Source: Phycisphaeraceae bacterium (GTDB taxonomy: Bacteria; Planctomycetota; Phycisphaerae; Phycisphaerales; UBA1924). From it: a stretch of DNA of 64,000 nucleotides. Location of the stretch: NCBI GenBank assembly GCA_019636615.1, contig JAHBXF010000001.1, forward strand, positions 186,001-250,000. The letters run 5' to 3'. Below are positions 49,808-56,992 of this stretch, piece after piece. How positions within the stretch are numbered: the stretch's first letter is position 1; every line of letters begins with the position of its first letter. Below the pieces are notes generated by a model, which was not told the DNA's origin, made no database searches, and saw nothing but the letters and a program-made list of their open reading frames with translations. Both the position numbers and the translations under genes were made by a program.

Positions 49808-51220
49808 ATGAACGACGCTGGCCGCTTTAACCTGCTGACTGAAAAATGGATCCCGGTGCTGCGAACCAACGGGCGCGCAGAGCGGGTAGGTGTTCTCACC
49901 GCGCTGCGGGAGGCAGGGAAGATCCGCCAGATCGCGGCGAGCAACCCGCTGGACAACGTGGCCCTGCTGCGGTTCCTGCTGGCGGTGATGCTGTGGTGCA
50001 GACCGGAGATGAGCGAAGCGGATCGAGTCTCGCTGGAAGGTGCTGCGGGCGTGCCGGGGGGGTGGCTGACAGCACTTCTTGAGCATGAGATGGCCTTCGA
50101 CCTATTGGGAAATGGAGATAGGTTTTATCAAGACCCTTCGTTGAAAGGCCAATCAATACGTCCGATTGCCGACCTCCTGGTTGAGTTCCCGGGCGCAGAT
50201 TCCGTGAACCACATGCAGCATATCAGGCATGACTCATGCGTGTTCTGCCCGGCGTGCTGCGTGCTGGGAATGCTCAGGCTGTCGGTCTGGGCTTCTGCCA
50301 ACAGGTTCTACCCTGCGTCCGTCAACCCAGGATCTGCGGCCTACGCCGTGGTTCAAGGGCGCAACCTGCTAAGCACACTCATTGAAAACCGGCCCAAACA
50401 AGAGTTGCCAACCGGCCCCGCACCATGGTTGTCCAACACACCACCCGACTCTCCGGGCACCATTGCCAACTTGGCCTGGCGGCCTCGACGGCTGTGGCTG
50501 AATGTCTCTACCACAGCGGGATTGTGCACAAACTGCGGCTGCTCTGGCGTCACAATCGCCAGCGTATGCAATGAAGGAGGTTGGCCTACTCCAACTACCG
50601 CTGGCAAAATCAAGAAGTTCTGGGCTGATGATCCGCACCTGCTATCGGATGACGAGCCGATCTCACTCCCGGGGCTCGGCACAAGTGTCGCCTCGCATTC
50701 AAGCAGGTTCTGGAAGGACGCACTGCGCCTGCGCAACGACAGAACGGGGAAGGCGGTTGCCATCGGCCCGGTCGTCAACAAGTTCATTTTTCAGGATGCG
50801 GTCTCGGTGAGCATTCCACCCTGTGAGGCCCAGAGCCATGCGTTGCTCGCGGACGAGTGCAACAGAAAAATTCGTGACCTGTTGCGCCGGGTGACGCCCA
50901 ATCCAGACCGTCAACACCCGGAGTTTGCTTCGATGCTGGCATTGATGACCGCACATACCGAAGTGAGAATCCGGGACTGCCTCAAAGAACCTGACCAGAT
51001 CGCTGATCGCTCAGCGTGGCTCTACGACATGTACAGCCCTGTGGTAGAAGGCACTGTCGCAGCAACTACTCGTGGATCGCATCTGAACAAGCGAATGATC
51101 TCATACCTCGCCACAGCCGCCTTGAAAGCAGCGATCAAGAAACTGGCATCGCAACCGAGCGGCACTGTCGTCGGCGAAGCCAAGAAACGCTCTCGAAAGC
51201 AGAAGGGCGGCGACACATGA
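49808..51220 (+). CDS. cas8e: type I-E Cascade large subunit Cas8e (Cse1/CasA)
   Basis: 470 aa, slightly short for the family (502 in E. coli). In Cascade it reads the PAM and, in ordinary type I-E, presents the R-loop to Cas3. Typical features: FNLLTEKWIPVLRTNG at the start, NPLDNVALLRFLLAVMLW, and two Cys clusters CVFCPACC (144-151) and CTNCGCSG (240-247) suited to a zinc site. The last ~130 residues should form the four-helix bundle; the end is very basic (KKRSRKQK). Base composition is markedly less GC-rich than around it (25 G+C of 60 in the line at 50101), a sign of transfer. First gene of the cas operon; stop overlaps cas11 (ATGA). Confidence 0.93.
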   Translation: MNDAGRFNLLTEKWIPVLRTNGRAERVGVLTALREAGKIRQIAASNPLDNVALLRFLLAVMLWCRPEMSEADRVSLEGAAGVPGGWLTALLEHEMAFDLLGNGDRFYQDPSLKGQSIRPIADLLVEFPGADSVNHMQHIRHDSCVFCPACCVLGMLRLSVWASANRFYPASVNPGSAAYAVVQGRNLLSTLIENRPKQELPTGPAPWLSNTPPDSPGTIANLAWRPRRLWLNVSTTAGLCTNCGCSGVTIASVCNEGGWPTPTTAGKIKKFWADDPHLLSDDEPISLPGLGTSVASHSSRFWKDALRLRNDRTGKAVAIGPVVNKFIFQDAVSVSIPPCEAQSHALLADECNRKIRDLLRRVTPNPDRQHPEFASMLALMTAHTEVRIRDCLKEPDQIADRSAWLYDMYSPVVEGTVAATTRGSHLNKRMISYLATAALKAAIKKLASQPSGTVVGEAKKRSRKQKGGDT

Positions 51221-51798
51221 GTACTGTCGCGTACATCCAACGCCTCAATGCGCTCAAAGAGGGCGAGCGGTCGCGACTGCGCTCACTCGCGGGGCAACCT
51301 CTGGACACGCGCCTCGACGGCTTCGATCTATTCACCGGCCTTTGGTGGCCACTGAGGCAGGCCAGCCCAGTAGCACCGCGGCGGGAACCCAGTTGGCTGG
51401 TGGCCAAACTTTTCGGGGCCTTTGGGTCGGAGGTGCCGCAGTTTGTGCCCGAAGGCCGCAACGTGGGGCCAACGCTGCCGGCAGTGTTGGGTGTGTGCGA
51501 ACCCCGCGATGAACACGGCCAGAAGCGATTCCGACAACGCGTTGATACGCTGCTCTGCACCCCCCTGCCCGCGCTTGAGCCGCACCTGCGGTGGGCGCTG
51601 GGGGAAGTGGCCAAGGCAATGCAAGGGCGGACCAGCCACGCGCGTGGGCTCACGGGCATCGACTGGGCGCGGCTGCTCGATGACCTTTCTATCTGGGACC
51701 GGGGGGAGGAGCATCGCCGCCGACGCGATGTCCGCGATGAATGGGCCGAGGCCTACCTGAATGCCGCTGAACGAACACACCAACAGCAAGGAGCATGA
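51217..51798 (+). CDS. cas11: type I-E Cascade small subunit Cas11 (Cse2/CasB)
   Basis: 193 aa, all-helical. Two copies line the belly of Cascade and hold the displaced strand and target DNA. Recognisable by RLNALKEGERSRLRSLAG, LFTGLWWPLRQ, VPQFVPEGRNVGPTLPAVLGV, KRFRQRVDTLL and the closing IDWARLLDDLSIWDRG...VRDEWAEAYL, all Cse2-type. ATG 51217 overlaps the cas8e stop by 4 nt. The cas7 start follows 1 nt after its stop. Confidence 0.92.
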   Translation: MSTVAYIQRLNALKEGERSRLRSLAGQPLDTRLDGFDLFTGLWWPLRQASPVAPRREPSWLVAKLFGAFGSEVPQFVPEGRNVGPTLPAVLGVCEPRDEHGQKRFRQRVDTLLCTPLPALEPHLRWALGEVAKAMQGRTSHARGLTGIDWARLLDDLSIWDRGEEHRRRRDVRDEWAEAYLNAAERTHQQQGA

Positions 51799-51799
51799 C

Positions 51800-52969
51800 G
51801 TGCTGATCGAGATCCACATGATTCAGAACCACAGCCCATCCAACCTCAACCGGGACGACCTTGGCGCGCCCAAGACCTGCATCTTCGGGGGGGCCACCCG
51901 GGCGAGGATTTCCAGCCAGTGCCTCAAGAGAAGCATAAGGCGGAGTGAACAGTTCGCCGCGGCGCTGGAGCGTGACGGCGGCGTTCGCACGCGTCGGCTG
52001 GTTGAAGACATCGCGAGAGTGGCCGCCGGCGAAGGCAATGAAGTGAAAGCCGAACACTTGAAGGCCATCAAAAAAGCCTTTGAGGCCGGCGGGGTTGGGA
52101 TGAAAGATGAAACCACATCGGACATCCTCTTTTTTCTTCCCAGGTCTGCCATCAATGAGATGGGACAGGCTGTGAAGAGTTCAACCGCCGACCTCGGCGA
52201 GAAGTTCGCCGAAAGCATCGGCAAGTTTGTCAAAACTCCAGACATCGCCCTGTGCGGCAGAATGACCGAGTTTGACGCAAAGGGACCATTCGACTCTCTC
52301 AAGGGTAAGTTCACCGTCGAGGCCGCGCTCTCGGCAGCGCACGCGGTCTCAACCCATGCCGTCGTGAACGAGGTTGACTATTTCACCGCCGCGGACGATA
52401 TCCCCGGCCAGGATGCCGGCGCGGGGCACGTCAATGAGGCGATGTACAACTCCGCGTGTTTCTACAAGCACTTCAGCATCGACTGGGATCAGTTGCTCAC
52501 CAACCTCGGCGGAGATGCCGACCTTGCCGCGCTCACGGTGAAGTGCTTCCTGGAAGGCGCTGCCATGGCAAGCCCATCGGGCAAACAACACGCCTACGCG
52601 GCCTTCAACCCGCCCGACGGCATTCTGGTCGAGGTCAAGACTGAATCCAAAACGCCGATCAGTTACGCCAACGCCTTCGCCGACCCCGTGCCCCCGCAGC
52701 CGGCGCGCGGCCTCATCGGCGAAAGCATCGCGCGCCTGGGGCAGTGCGTTCACGACATTACCACCGGGTATGGGATCAACGCCCGACGGTTTTGGTTCTC
52801 GCCGGGCCTGCGATACCCGCTCACGTTCATCGACCGTGCCGAAAGTCGTGACACCCAGAAAGAAAAGCCGGTCGTGGCTGAGAACGCAAGTCTGAGCACC
52901 TTTCCCGCGTTTGTGCAGCAAGTCATGCACGCCGTGAAGCAGCGCGGCACCGCCGGAGGCGCCTCGTGA
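51800..52969 (+). CDS. cas7e: type I-E Cascade backbone Cas7e (Cse4/CasC)
   Basis: 389 aa. Six copies form the crRNA-binding filament. The opening IEIHMIQNHSPSNLNRDDLGAPKTCIFGGATRARISSQCLKRSIR is the diagnostic start of Cas7e, and ADIPGQDAGAGHVNEAMYNSACFYKHFSIDWDQLL and NPPDGILVEVKTESKTPISYANAF are also characteristic. GTG 51800 was chosen: AAGGAG lies at 51788-51793 with a 6-nt gap and the family sequence begins directly. The stop overlaps the cas5e GTG (GTGA). Confidence 0.95.
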   Translation: MLIEIHMIQNHSPSNLNRDDLGAPKTCIFGGATRARISSQCLKRSIRRSEQFAAALERDGGVRTRRLVEDIARVAAGEGNEVKAEHLKAIKKAFEAGGVGMKDETTSDILFFLPRSAINEMGQAVKSSTADLGEKFAESIGKFVKTPDIALCGRMTEFDAKGPFDSLKGKFTVEAALSAAHAVSTHAVVNEVDYFTAADDIPGQDAGAGHVNEAMYNSACFYKHFSIDWDQLLTNLGGDADLAALTVKCFLEGAAMASPSGKQHAYAAFNPPDGILVEVKTESKTPISYANAFADPVPPQPARGLIGESIARLGQCVHDITTGYGINARRFWFSPGLRYPLTFIDRAESRDTQKEKPVVAENASLSTFPAFVQQVMHAVKQRGTAGGAS

Positions 52970-54114
52970 CCCCCGATGCCAACACCCTCTTTCTCCGGCT
53001 GGAGGGGCCCTTGCAGGCGTGGGGCGACACCTCAAAGTTTGTCATCCGCCGCAGCATGGATGCGCCGACAAAGTCCGGCGTGCTTGGCATGATCTGCGCC
53101 GCGATGGGACTTTCCCGCGCCGCCGCCCGTGAACGCTTGCCAGAACTCAACCGGCTGGCCATGGGTGCGCGCATCGACCGCCCCGGAACCCGCTGGTGGG
53201 ACTACCACACCGTCGGCGCGGGCATCGGCCTGACGACGGCCGGTGGCGGCGTCAAAACGGGTGCGCAGGGCACACTCATCACCCGCCGTGAGTACCTCGC
53301 CGATGCGAGTTTTCTGGTCGCCCTTCGGGGTGAGCCGTCACTGATCTCCCAAGTTGCCCAAGCACTCGCCACGCCGATTTGGCCGGTGTACCTCGGCAGA
53401 AAATCATGCCCGCCCAGCGTGCCCATTCTCGCCATGCCCCGCGCAGACGAATCATGGGCCAACCCCGGACACTTTAACACGTTGGATGATGCCCTGGCGG
53501 CCGTGCCATGGTGCCCGCGCTACGACCACGACCCCACGCCGCGCGGCACCGCCGACACCATCATCGAATGGCGGGCAGCGCACGATGACGACACCGCCCC
53601 CGAAGAGGCCGAGGTCTGGTATGATGCGCCGGTCTGCTTTGAGCCGCCCGTGCACGAGCCCCGCCTGGTGCTGCGCCGCGTGATCGCTGTGAACAGCGGC
53701 GGGCCCGCTCAGCAGCGCACCCCTGCACCGCCCCGCCCGCGGGCCGACTACAACAACGCCGAGTACAAAGAACGCCGCGCCCAGCGGCTCGAGGCCGACC
53801 ACGGCCTGTGCGTCTTCTGCAAAGCCCCCGGCACGACCGTGCAGCACATCACCTACCGAAGGGCCGGCGGTGATGAATCACAGGAAGACCTGCGCGCCCT
53901 GTGCCGGCTCTGCCACGACGCCGTCACCATGATCGAATACGGCACGGGCATGGGCCTGGACCGCATCGACCCCTGCCTGCCTCATTGGCGCGACGAGATC
54001 CTGCGCACGCGCGGCGAGATCCTGCGGTTTCGCTCTGAAGAAGGCCGACGGCGCGCCTTGCGGCAAGCATCCAAGCCCGTGGTGCGCGAGTTGCTGGAAG
54101 AGGAAGGGGCCTGA
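52966..54114 (+). CDS. cas5e: Cas5e fused to a C-terminal HNH nuclease (Cas5-HNH)
   Basis: 382 aa against ~225-250 for ordinary Cas5e. Residues 1-245 are Cas5e (TLFLRLEGPLQAWGDTSKF, MDAPTKSGVLGMICAAMGL, DYHTVGAGIG, TLITRREYLADASFLVAL), which caps the 5' handle of the crRNA next to Cas8. A Pro-rich linker (246-260) leads to an HNH domain at ~263-325 (nt 53752-53940): zinc ligands Cys282-x2-Cys285 and Cys313-x2-Cys316, and the catalytic core VQHITYRRAGGDESQEDL followed by LCRLCH, with His294, Asp308 and His317. A helical charged tail ends the protein. Intact motifs indicate a working DNA nuclease, which would supply cleavage in the absence of cas3. GTG start 52966 overlaps cas7e. Confidence 0.93.
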   Translation: MTPDANTLFLRLEGPLQAWGDTSKFVIRRSMDAPTKSGVLGMICAAMGLSRAAARERLPELNRLAMGARIDRPGTRWWDYHTVGAGIGLTTAGGGVKTGAQGTLITRREYLADASFLVALRGEPSLISQVAQALATPIWPVYLGRKSCPPSVPILAMPRADESWANPGHFNTLDDALAAVPWCPRYDHDPTPRGTADTIIEWRAAHDDDTAPEEAEVWYDAPVCFEPPVHEPRLVLRRVIAVNSGGPAQQRTPAPPRPRADYNNAEYKERRAQRLEADHGLCVFCKAPGTTVQHITYRRAGGDESQEDLRALCRLCHDAVTMIEYGTGMGLDRIDPCLPHWRDEILRTRGEILRFRSEEGRRRALRQASKPVVRELLEEEGA

Positions 54115-54117
54115 GAC

Positions 54118-54852
54118 GTGTACCACTCACTCCTGCTCATCGACACCGGGAACAACCCAGACCGGCCCGGCTGGAACATCGCACGCCGCTGGCTTGGCAA
54201 CCTCTACCGCGTTCACCAGCGGCTGTGCATGGGCTTTCCTACCGCGCAACGCGCTGGCGAAGATGATCCGTTCCTTCGGCCCTACCTCCCTCACGACTTC
54301 GCCCGGGGCCATGTCCACCGGCCCAGGGCGCGTCAGCAGGGTTTTCTCTTCCGCATCGACCCCCTGCCGCCCGGACGCGCGGCGATTCTTGTGCAATCTG
54401 CCATCGCGCCCGACTGGTCCTACGCCTTCCGCAACGCGCAGCACCTGCTGGCGGCGGCCCCGAACGTGCGGCCATGGGATCCGGCTTTCGCCGAGGGCCA
54501 GCACATGCGGTTTCGGCTCAGAGCCAACACGGTGCGCCGCGTCGCGCCCAAAGTGCCCGGGAAAGATGGGCCGCGCGTGCCCGTGCCGCCGACACCCGAA
54601 GCGCTGCGTGCCTGGCTCGACCAGCGTGCCGCGCGCGCGGGGTTTGTCGTTGATGAACTCGCGTGTGTGGTTCCCGGTTATGTCTCGTGGCGAAAATCGG
54701 CGAAAGACAACGGGGGGGCGCGATTGCGGTCTGTGCTCTATGAAGGCCGGCTCACCGTGCGGGATGCCGGCGCGTTCCGCACGGCTGTTGAATCCGGCAT
54801 CGGCCCCGCCAAGGCCTTCGGGTTCGGGCTGTTATCTGTGAAACCCGCGTGA
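54118..54852 (+). CDS. cas6e: type I-E crRNA endoribonuclease Cas6e (Cse3/CasE)
   Basis: 244 aa. Cuts the repeat RNA at the base of its hairpin and stays on the 3' end of crRNA in Cascade. Two ferredoxin-like folds; GNLYRVHQRLCMGFP holds the probable catalytic His33, and the C-terminal glycine-rich loop GIGPAKAFGFGLLSV is the family hallmark. Start GTG 54118, 3 nt after the cas5e stop and close behind GAGGAAGGGG. Expected to yield crRNAs with the 8-nt handle GUGAACCG. Confidence 0.92.
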   Translation: MYHSLLLIDTGNNPDRPGWNIARRWLGNLYRVHQRLCMGFPTAQRAGEDDPFLRPYLPHDFARGHVHRPRARQQGFLFRIDPLPPGRAAILVQSAIAPDWSYAFRNAQHLLAAAPNVRPWDPAFAEGQHMRFRLRANTVRRVAPKVPGKDGPRVPVPPTPEALRAWLDQRAARAGFVVDELACVVPGYVSWRKSAKDNGGARLRSVLYEGRLTVRDAGAFRTAVESGIGPAKAFGFGLLSVKPA

Positions 54853-55030
54853 TGGGGCAAGCAGAGTTCTTGGCGGCCTCGGGGGCCTGAAGTTGAGCCC
54901 TTGGCCCTGCGTGGCCGAATTGATCTTTGACATCTTCATAGCCGCCCGGCGCCGGGGCGCCAGGCTCGATCCCCTCAACCGGTGTGTGCGCCCGGCGTAT
55001 GTCCCCTTGCACAGCATCCGGGAGGCATCT
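54853..55030. other. 178-nt gap between cas6e and cas1
   Basis: This is the only sizeable gap in the cas operon. It contains a 12-bp perfect palindrome CCCGGCGCCGGG (near 54943) and a TTGACA hexamer (near 54926) without an evident -10 partner. The cas1 frame is open back to 54893, but the codons here do not look like Cas1. A separate cas1-cas2 promoter is possible. Confidence 0.4.
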
Positions 55031-55996
55031 TTGAAGACCAACCTTCTCGACATCGGCCGCTTTGATGACCGGCTCTCGTTCCTCTACATCGATCGGGCGA
55101 TCGTCAAGCACACGACCAATGCCATCGCCATCCATGAGTTTGACGGCGTCACCGAAGTGCCCGTGTCGTCGCTCGCGCTGCTCATGCTCGGCCCGGGCAC
55201 GCGGATCAGCCATCAGGCCATCAAGGCCCTGGCGGACAACAACTGCCTCGTCGTCTGGTCTGGTGAGTTTGGCATTCGGTTTTATGCCTGCGGCATGGGG
55301 GGCAGCCGCCACAGCCGCAACCTCCTGAAGCAAGCAGGGCTGGCATTGAACGATCGCACCCGCCTGCGGGTGGTGGTCCGCATGTACTGCGCCCGCTTCA
55401 CCGAAGACCGCATCGATTCTGCCCTGACGCTCGAACAACTGCGGGGCAAAGAAGGTGTCCGTGTGCGGCAGGCATACGCGAACGCATCGGCGGCCTACGG
55501 CGTGCCTTGGCACGGTCGCAACTACAAACGCAAAGACTGGTCCGCGGGCGACCCGGTGAACCGGGCCCTCTCGGCCGCCAACGCCTGTCTCTACGGGCTG
55601 GTGCACGCCGCGATTCTCTCGGGCGGTTACTCCCCCGCCATCGGTTTCATCCATTGCGGCAAGCAACTCTCATTCGTCTACGACATCGCTGATCTCTACA
55701 AGTGTGAACTGACCATCCCTCTGGCCTTTGAGATGGCCGCGCGGCATCCCGAGAACATCGAGCGCGCTGTTCGGCAGGAGGCCCGTCGCCGGTTTCACGG
55801 GGCGAAGTTGATGAAGCGCCTGTTGACGGATATCGCCGGGGTGCTTGACATCAGCGAAGACGCACCCGATGAGTTCGCCGATGACCCCGCCCTGCCGGCT
55901 CAACTGTGGGAGCCGCAGGGTTTCTCCGCCGACACGCCCATCGGAACCATTCTGGCCTTCAAGCCCGGCGACAAGGGCGGGGGGGACGCCGCATGA
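55031..55996 (+). CDS. cas1: CRISPR integrase Cas1 (type I-E)
   Basis: 321 aa. Metal-dependent integrase that inserts spacers with Cas2. The TTG at 55031 is taken as start: GGGAGG lies at 55020-55025 with a 5-nt gap, and with this start the catalytic residues fall at Glu141 (RGKEGVRVR), His208 (FIHCGK) and Asp221 (YDIAD), the same numbers as in E. coli Cas1, which supports the choice strongly. LLMLGPGTRISHQAI, NLLKQAGLAL and WSAGDPVNRALSAANACLYG are also typical. The stop overlaps cas2 (ATGA). Confidence 0.94.
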   Translation: MKTNLLDIGRFDDRLSFLYIDRAIVKHTTNAIAIHEFDGVTEVPVSSLALLMLGPGTRISHQAIKALADNNCLVVWSGEFGIRFYACGMGGSRHSRNLLKQAGLALNDRTRLRVVVRMYCARFTEDRIDSALTLEQLRGKEGVRVRQAYANASAAYGVPWHGRNYKRKDWSAGDPVNRALSAANACLYGLVHAAILSGGYSPAIGFIHCGKQLSFVYDIADLYKCELTIPLAFEMAARHPENIERAVRQEARRRFHGAKLMKRLLTDIAGVLDISEDAPDEFADDPALPAQLWEPQGFSADTPIGTILAFKPGDKGGGDAA

Positions 55997-56283
55997 TGAT
56001 CCTCATCTTGAGCAAAGTTCGCCCCGGGCTGCGTGGGCGGCTGACACGATGGCTTGTTCAGCCGCAATCAGGGGTGTATCTGGGCCATCCCTCGGCCAGA
56101 ATCCGAGAAAGACTCTGGGCGTTGGTGTGCGAGGAGATCGACACCCGTGGAGGCTCCGCGATCTTGATCGCCCCCACGCCTACCGAACAGGGATACTCGG
56201 TCGAGACACGTGGCCAAACTCCAAAAGACTTCGTAGACTTCGACGGTCTCACGCTGCCAAAAACCCGCAAGAAAGCATCGTGA
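55993..56283 (+). CDS. cas2: CRISPR adaptation protein Cas2e
   Basis: 96 aa. Starts MMILILSKVRPGLRGRLTRW, continues SGVYLGHPSARIRERLW and SAILIAPTPTEQGYSVETRGQ, matching the I-E type of Cas2 (the CasB/Cse-associated form rather than the common ferredoxin Cas2). The ATG overlaps the cas1 stop by 4 nt. The first CRISPR repeat starts 6 nt after its stop. Confidence 0.93.
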   Translation: MMILILSKVRPGLRGRLTRWLVQPQSGVYLGHPSARIRERLWALVCEEIDTRGGSAILIAPTPTEQGYSVETRGQTPKDFVDFDGLTLPKTRKKAS

Positions 56284-56289
56284 GCCAGT

Positions 56290-56992
56290 GATGTCCCCAC
56301 GCACGTGGGGGTGAACCGTAACCCGAGCAGCGGCTGAAGTGGGCAAGGTTGATGTCCCCACGCACGTGGGGGTGAACCGCGAATCACCGCAAAACAGATC
56401 AACGCGATCTGGATGTCCCCACGCACGTGGGGGTGAACCGCCCGACAAGGACAGCCCGCGCCGGGCGTGGGAGGATGTCCCCACGCACGTGGGGGTGAAC
56501 CGACGCAACCGATGGCCCAGCAAGGAGAAGACGCGATGTCCCCACGCACGTGGGGGTGAACCGGCATGATCACAGGGCAGACATCGGCGAGGGAAGATGT
56601 CCCCACGCACGTGGGGGTGAACCGAAGGGCACGCATGTTCTGATACGGTCCTATTCGATGTCCCCACGCACGTGGGGGTGAACCGCGTACGGGCTTGCGC
56701 TGTGGGCGATGTATCAGGGATGTCCCCACGCACGTGGGGGTGAACCGAACGCCCGCAAGGTGGAGGAAATGGCCCAGGTGATGTCCCCACGCACGTGGGG
56801 GTGAACCGTGAGACTCTCACGTACCCTAGGGTTGACGCTCGATGTCCCCACGCACGTGGGGGTGAACCGGCCGGTGGCTCGCTGATCTTGCAGCACGTCG
56901 AGATGTCCCCACGCACGTGGGGGTGAACCGGGGAATCGGACCCGTAGACGTTAGCCTAGGGGTGATGTCCCCACGCACGTGGGGGTGAACCG
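56290..56992 (+). CRISPR. type I-E CRISPR array, 12 repeats and 11 spacers
   Basis: The repeat is 29 nt (first copy 56290-56318, last 56964-56992), starts GATGTCCCCA and ends GGTGAACCG. Its core CCCCAC-GCAC-GTGGGG has the same layout as the E. coli type I-E repeat (6-bp stem, 4-nt loop, closing ACCG), which fixes transcription on the plus strand, the same way as the cas genes. All twelve copies are identical, including the last. Spacers are 32 nt (eight) or 33 nt (three); none is repeated. Only 6 nt separate cas2 from the first repeat, and only 67 nt separate the last repeat from the purC stop, so no normal leader is present on either side. Confidence 0.98.

What the first reader, a model, noticed from the sequence alone, without database searches (positions are those of the whole stretch)
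49808..56992. Cas3-less type I-E CRISPR-Cas locus with an HNH nuclease built into Cas5e
Seen: a complete adaptation module (cas1, cas2), array and Cascade genes in a tightly overlapping operon, with no cas3 (no HD-helicase gene) in 49-57 kb or elsewhere in the 64 kb. Cas5e carries 137 extra C-terminal residues with a full HNH motif (Cys282/285, His294, Asp308, Cys313/316, His317) after a flexible linker. Known: ordinary type I-E needs Cas3 to cut DNA; Cas5-HNH and Cas8-HNH fusions replacing Cas3 have been described in a few lineages. Inferred: this Cascade binds and cuts its target itself, giving defined double- or single-strand breaks rather than processive degradation. A planctomycetal example with its own cas1-cas2 and array appears new to me.
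Basis: partly seen in the sequence, partly recalled or inferred. Interest (0 to 1): 0.93.

Follow-up and report, generated by a model that had tools for sequence, protein, structure and literature searches.

The report
Type I-E2 (Cas5-HNH) CRISPR-Cas locus
A planctomycete genome carries a complete CRISPR immune system in which a small DNA-cutting domain, fused to one subunit of the guide complex, replaces the usual Cas3 shredder; it is a sound example of a rare system that was described and structurally solved in 2023-2024, so it is not new in kind.

Summary
Window 49808-56992 holds cas8e, cas11, cas7, cas5e-HNH, cas6e, cas1 and cas2 in one tight operon, then an array of 12 identical 29-nt repeats. 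Cas5e (382 aa) ends in a Pfam-recognised HNH domain (residues 282-320). The interpretation also holds: no Cas3 was found anywhere in the genome (3.84 Mb, 2 contigs, 92.5% complete). The sub-cut-off Cas3-like hits are other proteins, such as RecG, Mfd, DEAD-box and SNF2 helicases and HD phosphodiesterases. The system is already known: it is subtype I-E2. Each of the five Cascade subunits has as its best solved-structure match the published Cas5-HNH Cascade of Ca. Cloacimonetes (8yb6 and sister entries). The predicted fold of this Cas5-HNH also finds those entries first. Purified Cas5-HNH Cascade has been shown to cut dsDNA precisely. A planctomycetal example is not new among public genomes: 48 GTDB genomes in about a dozen phyla carry a near-full-length relative. 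At least 14 are Planctomycetota, several with their own cas1-cas2 and array. The zinc cysteines, H294 and H317 are invariant in 50 of 50 sequences. I file it as a new member of a known kind. Low interest.

The parts
49808..51220 (+). cas8e (cse1/casA), 470 aa, large subunit; by homology recognises the PAM and opens the target
   Evidence: PF09481 2.9e-33, TIGR02547 over cut-off; best PDB matches 8zlu_C and 8yb6_J, the Cas5-HNH Cascade Cse1
51217..51798 (+). cas11 (cse2/casB), 193 aa, small subunit; ATGA overlap with cas8e
   Evidence: PF09485, TIGR02548 over cut-off; only PDB match is 8yb6_K
51761..52969 (+). cas7e (cse4/casC), 402 aa, backbone subunit (start codon uncertain)
   Evidence: PF09344 3.3e-88; best PDB match 8yb6_D, 332 bits against 150 for the next; only copy in the genome
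52966..54114 (+). cas5e-HNH (casD with C-terminal HNH), 382 aa, GTG start; Cas5 part about residues 1-243, linker about 244-259, HNH region about 260-367
   Evidence: TIGR01868 7.3e-43 and PF01844 over cut-off; PDB 8yb6_A 7.8e-124; AlphaFold model mean pLDDT 80.7; Foldseek top hits are all Cas5-HNH Cascade entries
53809..53925 (+). HNH nuclease core within cas5e-HNH, residues 282-320 (C282, C285, H294, D308, C313, C316, H317)
   Evidence: PF01844 match 282-320; invariant Cys and His in 50 of 50 homologues
54118..54852 (+). cas6e (cse3/casE), 244 aa, crRNA-processing endoribonuclease
   Evidence: PF08798, TIGR01907; best PDB match 8yb6_B
54893..55996 (+). cas1e integrase; the open frame allows 367 aa but the real start is probably downstream (about 54989-55031), since family models begin near residue 50
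   Evidence: TIGR03638 6.1e-106 covering residues 53-318
55993..56283 (+). cas2e, 96 aa, ATGA overlap with cas1
   Evidence: PF09707, TIGR01873 over cut-off
56290..56992 (+). CRISPR array, 12 identical 29-nt repeats, 11 spacers of 32-33 nt, same strand as the operon, starting 6 nt after the cas2 stop codon

Best explanation
A complete, apparently intact subtype I-E2 (Cas5-HNH) CRISPR-Cas system. Cas6e cuts the array transcript into crRNAs. Cas8e, Cas11, Cas7, Cas5e-HNH and Cas6e form a Cascade on a crRNA with a 32-nt spacer. Cas8e reads the PAM and the complex opens an R-loop. [quoted passage not shown] No Cas3 is needed and no long-range degradation follows. Cas1-Cas2 add spacers. Shown here: gene content, domain, invariant catalytic and zinc residues, absence of a detectable Cas3 in the genome, and orthology of every Cascade subunit to the characterised complex. 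Inferred from that orthology: cleavage itself, the cut geometry, the collateral ssDNA activity, and activity in this host.
For: Gene families. Best match of all five Cascade subunits to the PDB set 8yb6/8yha/8zlu/8zp7/9jxs. Foldseek ranks 1-7 are all Cas5-HNH Cascade entries. No Cas3 over cut-off with three models, and the weak hits are ordinary helicases, ATPases or HD proteins. HNH residues invariant across 50 homologues. Published cleavage, mutant and PAM data for the Cloacimonetes system (PMC10910872), structural summary (PMC11822464), classification as I-E2 (PMC12669027).
Against: No experiment exists on this locus. No protospacer was found for the spacers tested, so neither the PAM nor recent use is documented. 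The genome is 92.5% complete by markers, so a missing cas3 cannot be excluded with certainty. The position next to H294 is Q293 rather than the Asp or His common in other HNH enzymes (own knowledge), but Q is conserved in 49 of 50 homologues and in the active Cloacimonetes protein.
Confidence: 0.95

Rival explanations
1. A degraded type I-E locus that lost cas3 and now only binds DNA (silencing), with the HNH domain an inactive passenger.
For: cas3 is absent; no protospacers found.
Against: The HNH zinc and catalytic residues are invariant in 50 homologues across about a dozen phyla, which points to strong selection. All cas genes are open and all repeats identical. The closest solved relative cuts dsDNA through this domain.
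Confidence: 0.03
2. The Cascade works with a Cas3 encoded in trans (missed in the unassembled part of the genome), and HNH is an accessory.
For: 15 of 48 relatives' genomes encode a Cas3 over the cut-off somewhere; completeness here is 92.5%.
Against: No Cas3 over the cut-off in this two-contig genome. In the three relatives examined in detail the Cas3 sits beside its own canonical cas8e, in two of them within a separate I-E operon that also has cas7. 33 of 48 relatives' genomes show none over the cut-off. Published I-E2 complexes cut without Cas3.
Confidence: 0.02

Closest known systems
Subtype I-E2 Cas5-HNH system of Candidatus Cloacimonetes (Altae-Tran et al. 2023; PDB 8yb6, 8yha, 8zlu, 8zp7, 9jxs)
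   Same: Same five Cascade genes, the same C-terminal HNH fusion on Cas5e with the same motif spacing and the Q-H motif, typically no Cas3, crRNAs with 32-nt spacers; every Cascade subunit finds it as its best solved match.
   Different: Different phylum; Cas5-HNH about 54% identical in the Foldseek alignment; Cas8e clearly similar only over residues 6-263 at this sensitivity; PAM of the present system not determined.
Subtype I-F4 Cas8-HNH (HNH-Cascade, Selenomonas sp.)
   Same: Same principle: HNH in Cascade replaces Cas3.
   Different: HNH sits in Cas8f, I-F backbone, 5' overhangs instead of 3' (PMC10910872); an independent fusion.
Canonical type I-E (E. coli Cascade-Cas3)
   Same: Cse1, Cse2, Cas7, Cas5, Cas6e, Cas1e, Cas2e and I-E repeat type.
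   Different: No Cas3; extra HNH on Cas5e.
IscB/Cas9 HNH
   Same: RNA-guided HNH; weak NCBIfam match of residues 265-319 to the IscB model.
   Different: Single-effector RuvC+HNH enzymes; the match is far below the IscB cut-off (21.5 against 175 bits).

Membership tests
CRISPR-Cas subtype I-E2 (Cas5-HNH) | Type I-E effector genes (cas8e, cas11, cas7, cas5e, cas6e) | tested here: met
CRISPR-Cas subtype I-E2 (Cas5-HNH) | HNH nuclease domain fused to Cas5 | tested here: met
   PF01844 over cut-off on residues 282-320; Foldseek and sequence matches to Cas5-HNH
CRISPR-Cas subtype I-E2 (Cas5-HNH) | Cas3 typically absent | tested here: met
   No hit over cut-off for PF18395, TIGR01587 or TIGR01596 in the whole genome; weak hits explained
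CRISPR-Cas subtype I-E2 (Cas5-HNH) | Groups with the characterised system rather than with canonical I-E | tested here: met
   All five subunits score best with 8yb6-series chains; near-full-length relatives with HNH in 48 genomes
CRISPR-Cas subtype I-E2 (Cas5-HNH) | crRNA-guided dsDNA cleavage on the PAM-distal side by HNH | not testable with these tools
   needs biochemistry; residues conserved
Canonical type I-E with Cas3 | Cas3 helicase-nuclease in the genome | tested here: not met

The most novel reading that the evidence does not exclude
With an intact cas1-cas2 and array but no Cas3, this lineage would have to acquire spacers without Cas3-generated fragments. The defined PAM-distal double-strand break made by Cas5-HNH would then itself supply prespacers, a different form of target-directed ('primed') adaptation. 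Nothing here tests it.
Probability: 0.12. Interest if true: 0.45.

Novelty: new member of a known kind. Interest (0 to 1): 0.2.

Why it matters
Type I-E2 Cascades cut DNA precisely and have been used for genome editing in human cells (PMC10910872), so further intact, well-assembled orthologues are useful as alternatives with possibly different PAMs. The survey shows that I-E2 is not confined to Cloacimonadota: it is spread thinly over about a dozen phyla with a well-kept nuclease centre. That supports a stable and horizontally mobile system rather than a dying one.

Tried and rejected
Protospacers: 11 spacers against phages and plasmids, 22-nt seeds of seven spacers in IMG/VR, and the array of relative L035 against phages all gave nothing, so no PAM could be inferred. 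A cas2-embedded leader: the array starts 6 nt after cas2 and most I-E2 relatives have gaps of 30 nt or less (25 of 35). I tested whether this is specific to I-E2 and marked by synonymous codon constraint. Non-HNH I-E-like controls also show short gaps of 16-23 nt (L138, L064, L065, L070/L130, L126), and codon constraint in the cas2 tail was not clearly above the rest of the gene, so I dropped it. HNH inactivation because Q293 replaces the usual Asp or His: rejected because Q is conserved in 49 of 50 relatives and in the active Cloacimonetes enzyme. The promoter scan found nothing.

Full report
Observation. The stretch 49808-56992 holds seven cas genes on the + strand with overlapping or nearly touching ends (cas8e/cas11 and cas1/cas2 share ATGA; cas11/cas7 overlap by 38 nt; cas7/cas5 overlap by 4 nt), followed by 12 identical repeats with 32-33 nt spacers. 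Every gene matches its expected family over the curated Pfam cut-off, and the NCBIfam type I-E models over theirs; PADLOC models agree. Cas5e has 382 residues. Residues 7-187 match Cas5 and residues 282-320 match the HNH family over its cut-off. C282, C285, H294, C313, C316 and H317 are invariant in 50 of 50 homologues, and D308 is Asp or Glu in 49.

No Cas3. The genome is held as two contigs (3.84 Mb, 92.5% complete). Cas3_C (PF18395) gives nothing. cas3_core (TIGR01587) and cas3_HD (TIGR01596) give only weak hits, all below cut-off. The proteins under those hits are RecG, Mfd (TRCF), a DEAD-box helicase, an SNF2 helicase, a type II/IV secretion ATPase, PhoH, RNase Y and HD or HDOD signalling proteins. 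The repeat and the Cas7 family occur only at this locus.

What it is. By sequence, the best solved relative of all five Cascade proteins is the Cas5-HNH Cascade of Ca. Cloacimonetes. Cas5-HNH matches 8yb6_A at 7.8e-124 over residues 3-366 in two stretches, HNH included. Cas8e matches 8zlu_C/8yb6_J, Cas11 matches 8yb6_K alone, Cas7 matches 8yb6_D with twice the score of the next and Cas6e matches 8yb6_B. A structure predicted from 50 homologues (pLDDT 80.7) has as its first seven Foldseek hits in the PDB all Cas5-HNH Cascade entries, ahead of ordinary Cas5e. The global TM-score is only about 0.5; I put this down to the placement of HNH relative to Cas5 and to two low-confidence stretches (residues 17-29 and 79-111).

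Known biology. Altae-Tran et al. 2023 (PMC10910872) described Cas5-HNH systems, most of them without cas3. They showed PAM-dependent plasmid depletion, crRNAs with 32-nt spacers and precise dsDNA cleavage 3-4 and 8 bp beyond the PAM-distal end with 3' overhangs. They also showed collateral ssDNA cleavage, editing in human cells, and loss of activity when HNH catalytic residues were mutated. Cryo-EM work (summarised in PMC11822464) places HNH between Cas6 and Cas11 in the belly of the complex. Makarova et al. 2025 (PMC12669027) name it variant I-E2. I did not read Zhang et al. 2024 (Mol Cell), the primary structure paper; it did not come up in the library searches.

Distribution. One scan of GTDB genomes returned 48 near-full-length Cas5-HNH relatives (45-73% identity) in Planctomycetota (at least 14), Desulfobacterota and other deltaproteobacteria, Nitrospirota, Armatimonadota, Chloroflexota, Cloacimonadota, Nitrospinota, Acidobacteriota, Hydrogenedentota, Sumerlaeota, Kapabacteria, Myxococcota, Pseudomonadota and Bacillota. 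Many carry the whole operon with cas1, cas2 and array. Among Planctomycetota these include L014, L023, L027, L030, L035, L039, L053 and L060. The phylum of the window was confirmed as Planctomycetota because genomes labelled 'same phylum' share identical sequence with named planctomycetal records (L085 = L023, L088 = L035, L086 = L030). The Cas5-HNH tree mixes phyla (Planctomycetota need 9 label changes). None of the listed genomes sampled from the same family or order has Cas2e. Both point to horizontal spread.

Cas3 in relatives. 15 of 48 I-E2 genomes have a Cas3 over cut-off somewhere. Four neighbourhoods were fetched; one was too short to judge. In the other three the Cas3 lies next to its own cas8e, in two of them with its own cas7 in a separate canonical I-E operon. 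This does not support a Cas3 in trans for I-E2.

Array. Degenerate repeats, where present, mostly lie at the end away from cas2 in relatives, so the cas2 end is the likely leader end. Here only 6 nt separate cas2 from the first repeat. Short gaps are common in I-E2 (25 of 35 are 30 nt or less) but also occur in non-HNH I-E-like controls, so I make nothing of it.

Verdict. What remains open is not specific to this genome: how a Cas3-less I-E system with a full adaptation module acquires spacers.

Noticed in passing
window 56281-56290: The CRISPR array begins 6 nt after the cas2 stop codon, leaving no intergenic leader; 25 of 35 measured I-E2 loci have gaps of 30 nt or less, often ending in CAGT just before the first repeat. 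Some non-HNH I-E-like loci show short gaps too.
   Followed up: yes
L090 and L132 (same genome, handle G214): A divergent planctomycetal Cas5 relative (36% identity over residues 6-366, so reaching into the HNH part) whose cas2 carries an internal TGA stop: possibly a decaying I-E2 locus.
   Followed up: no
L072: An IMG/VR viral contig (8.3 kb) carries I-E2 Cascade genes including Cas5-HNH (57% identity); this may be a virus- or mobile-element-borne copy or a misassigned bacterial contig.
   Followed up: no
L135 (G003) and L138 (G036): Genomes that hold an I-E2 locus also hold a separate canonical Cas3-type I-E locus, so the two can coexist.
   Followed up: partly
L013: The closest relative (73% identity) shows no detectable cas1-cas2 in the fetched stretch, yet has an array of about 31 repeats with near-identical repeat sequence downstream of cas6e.
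   Followed up: no
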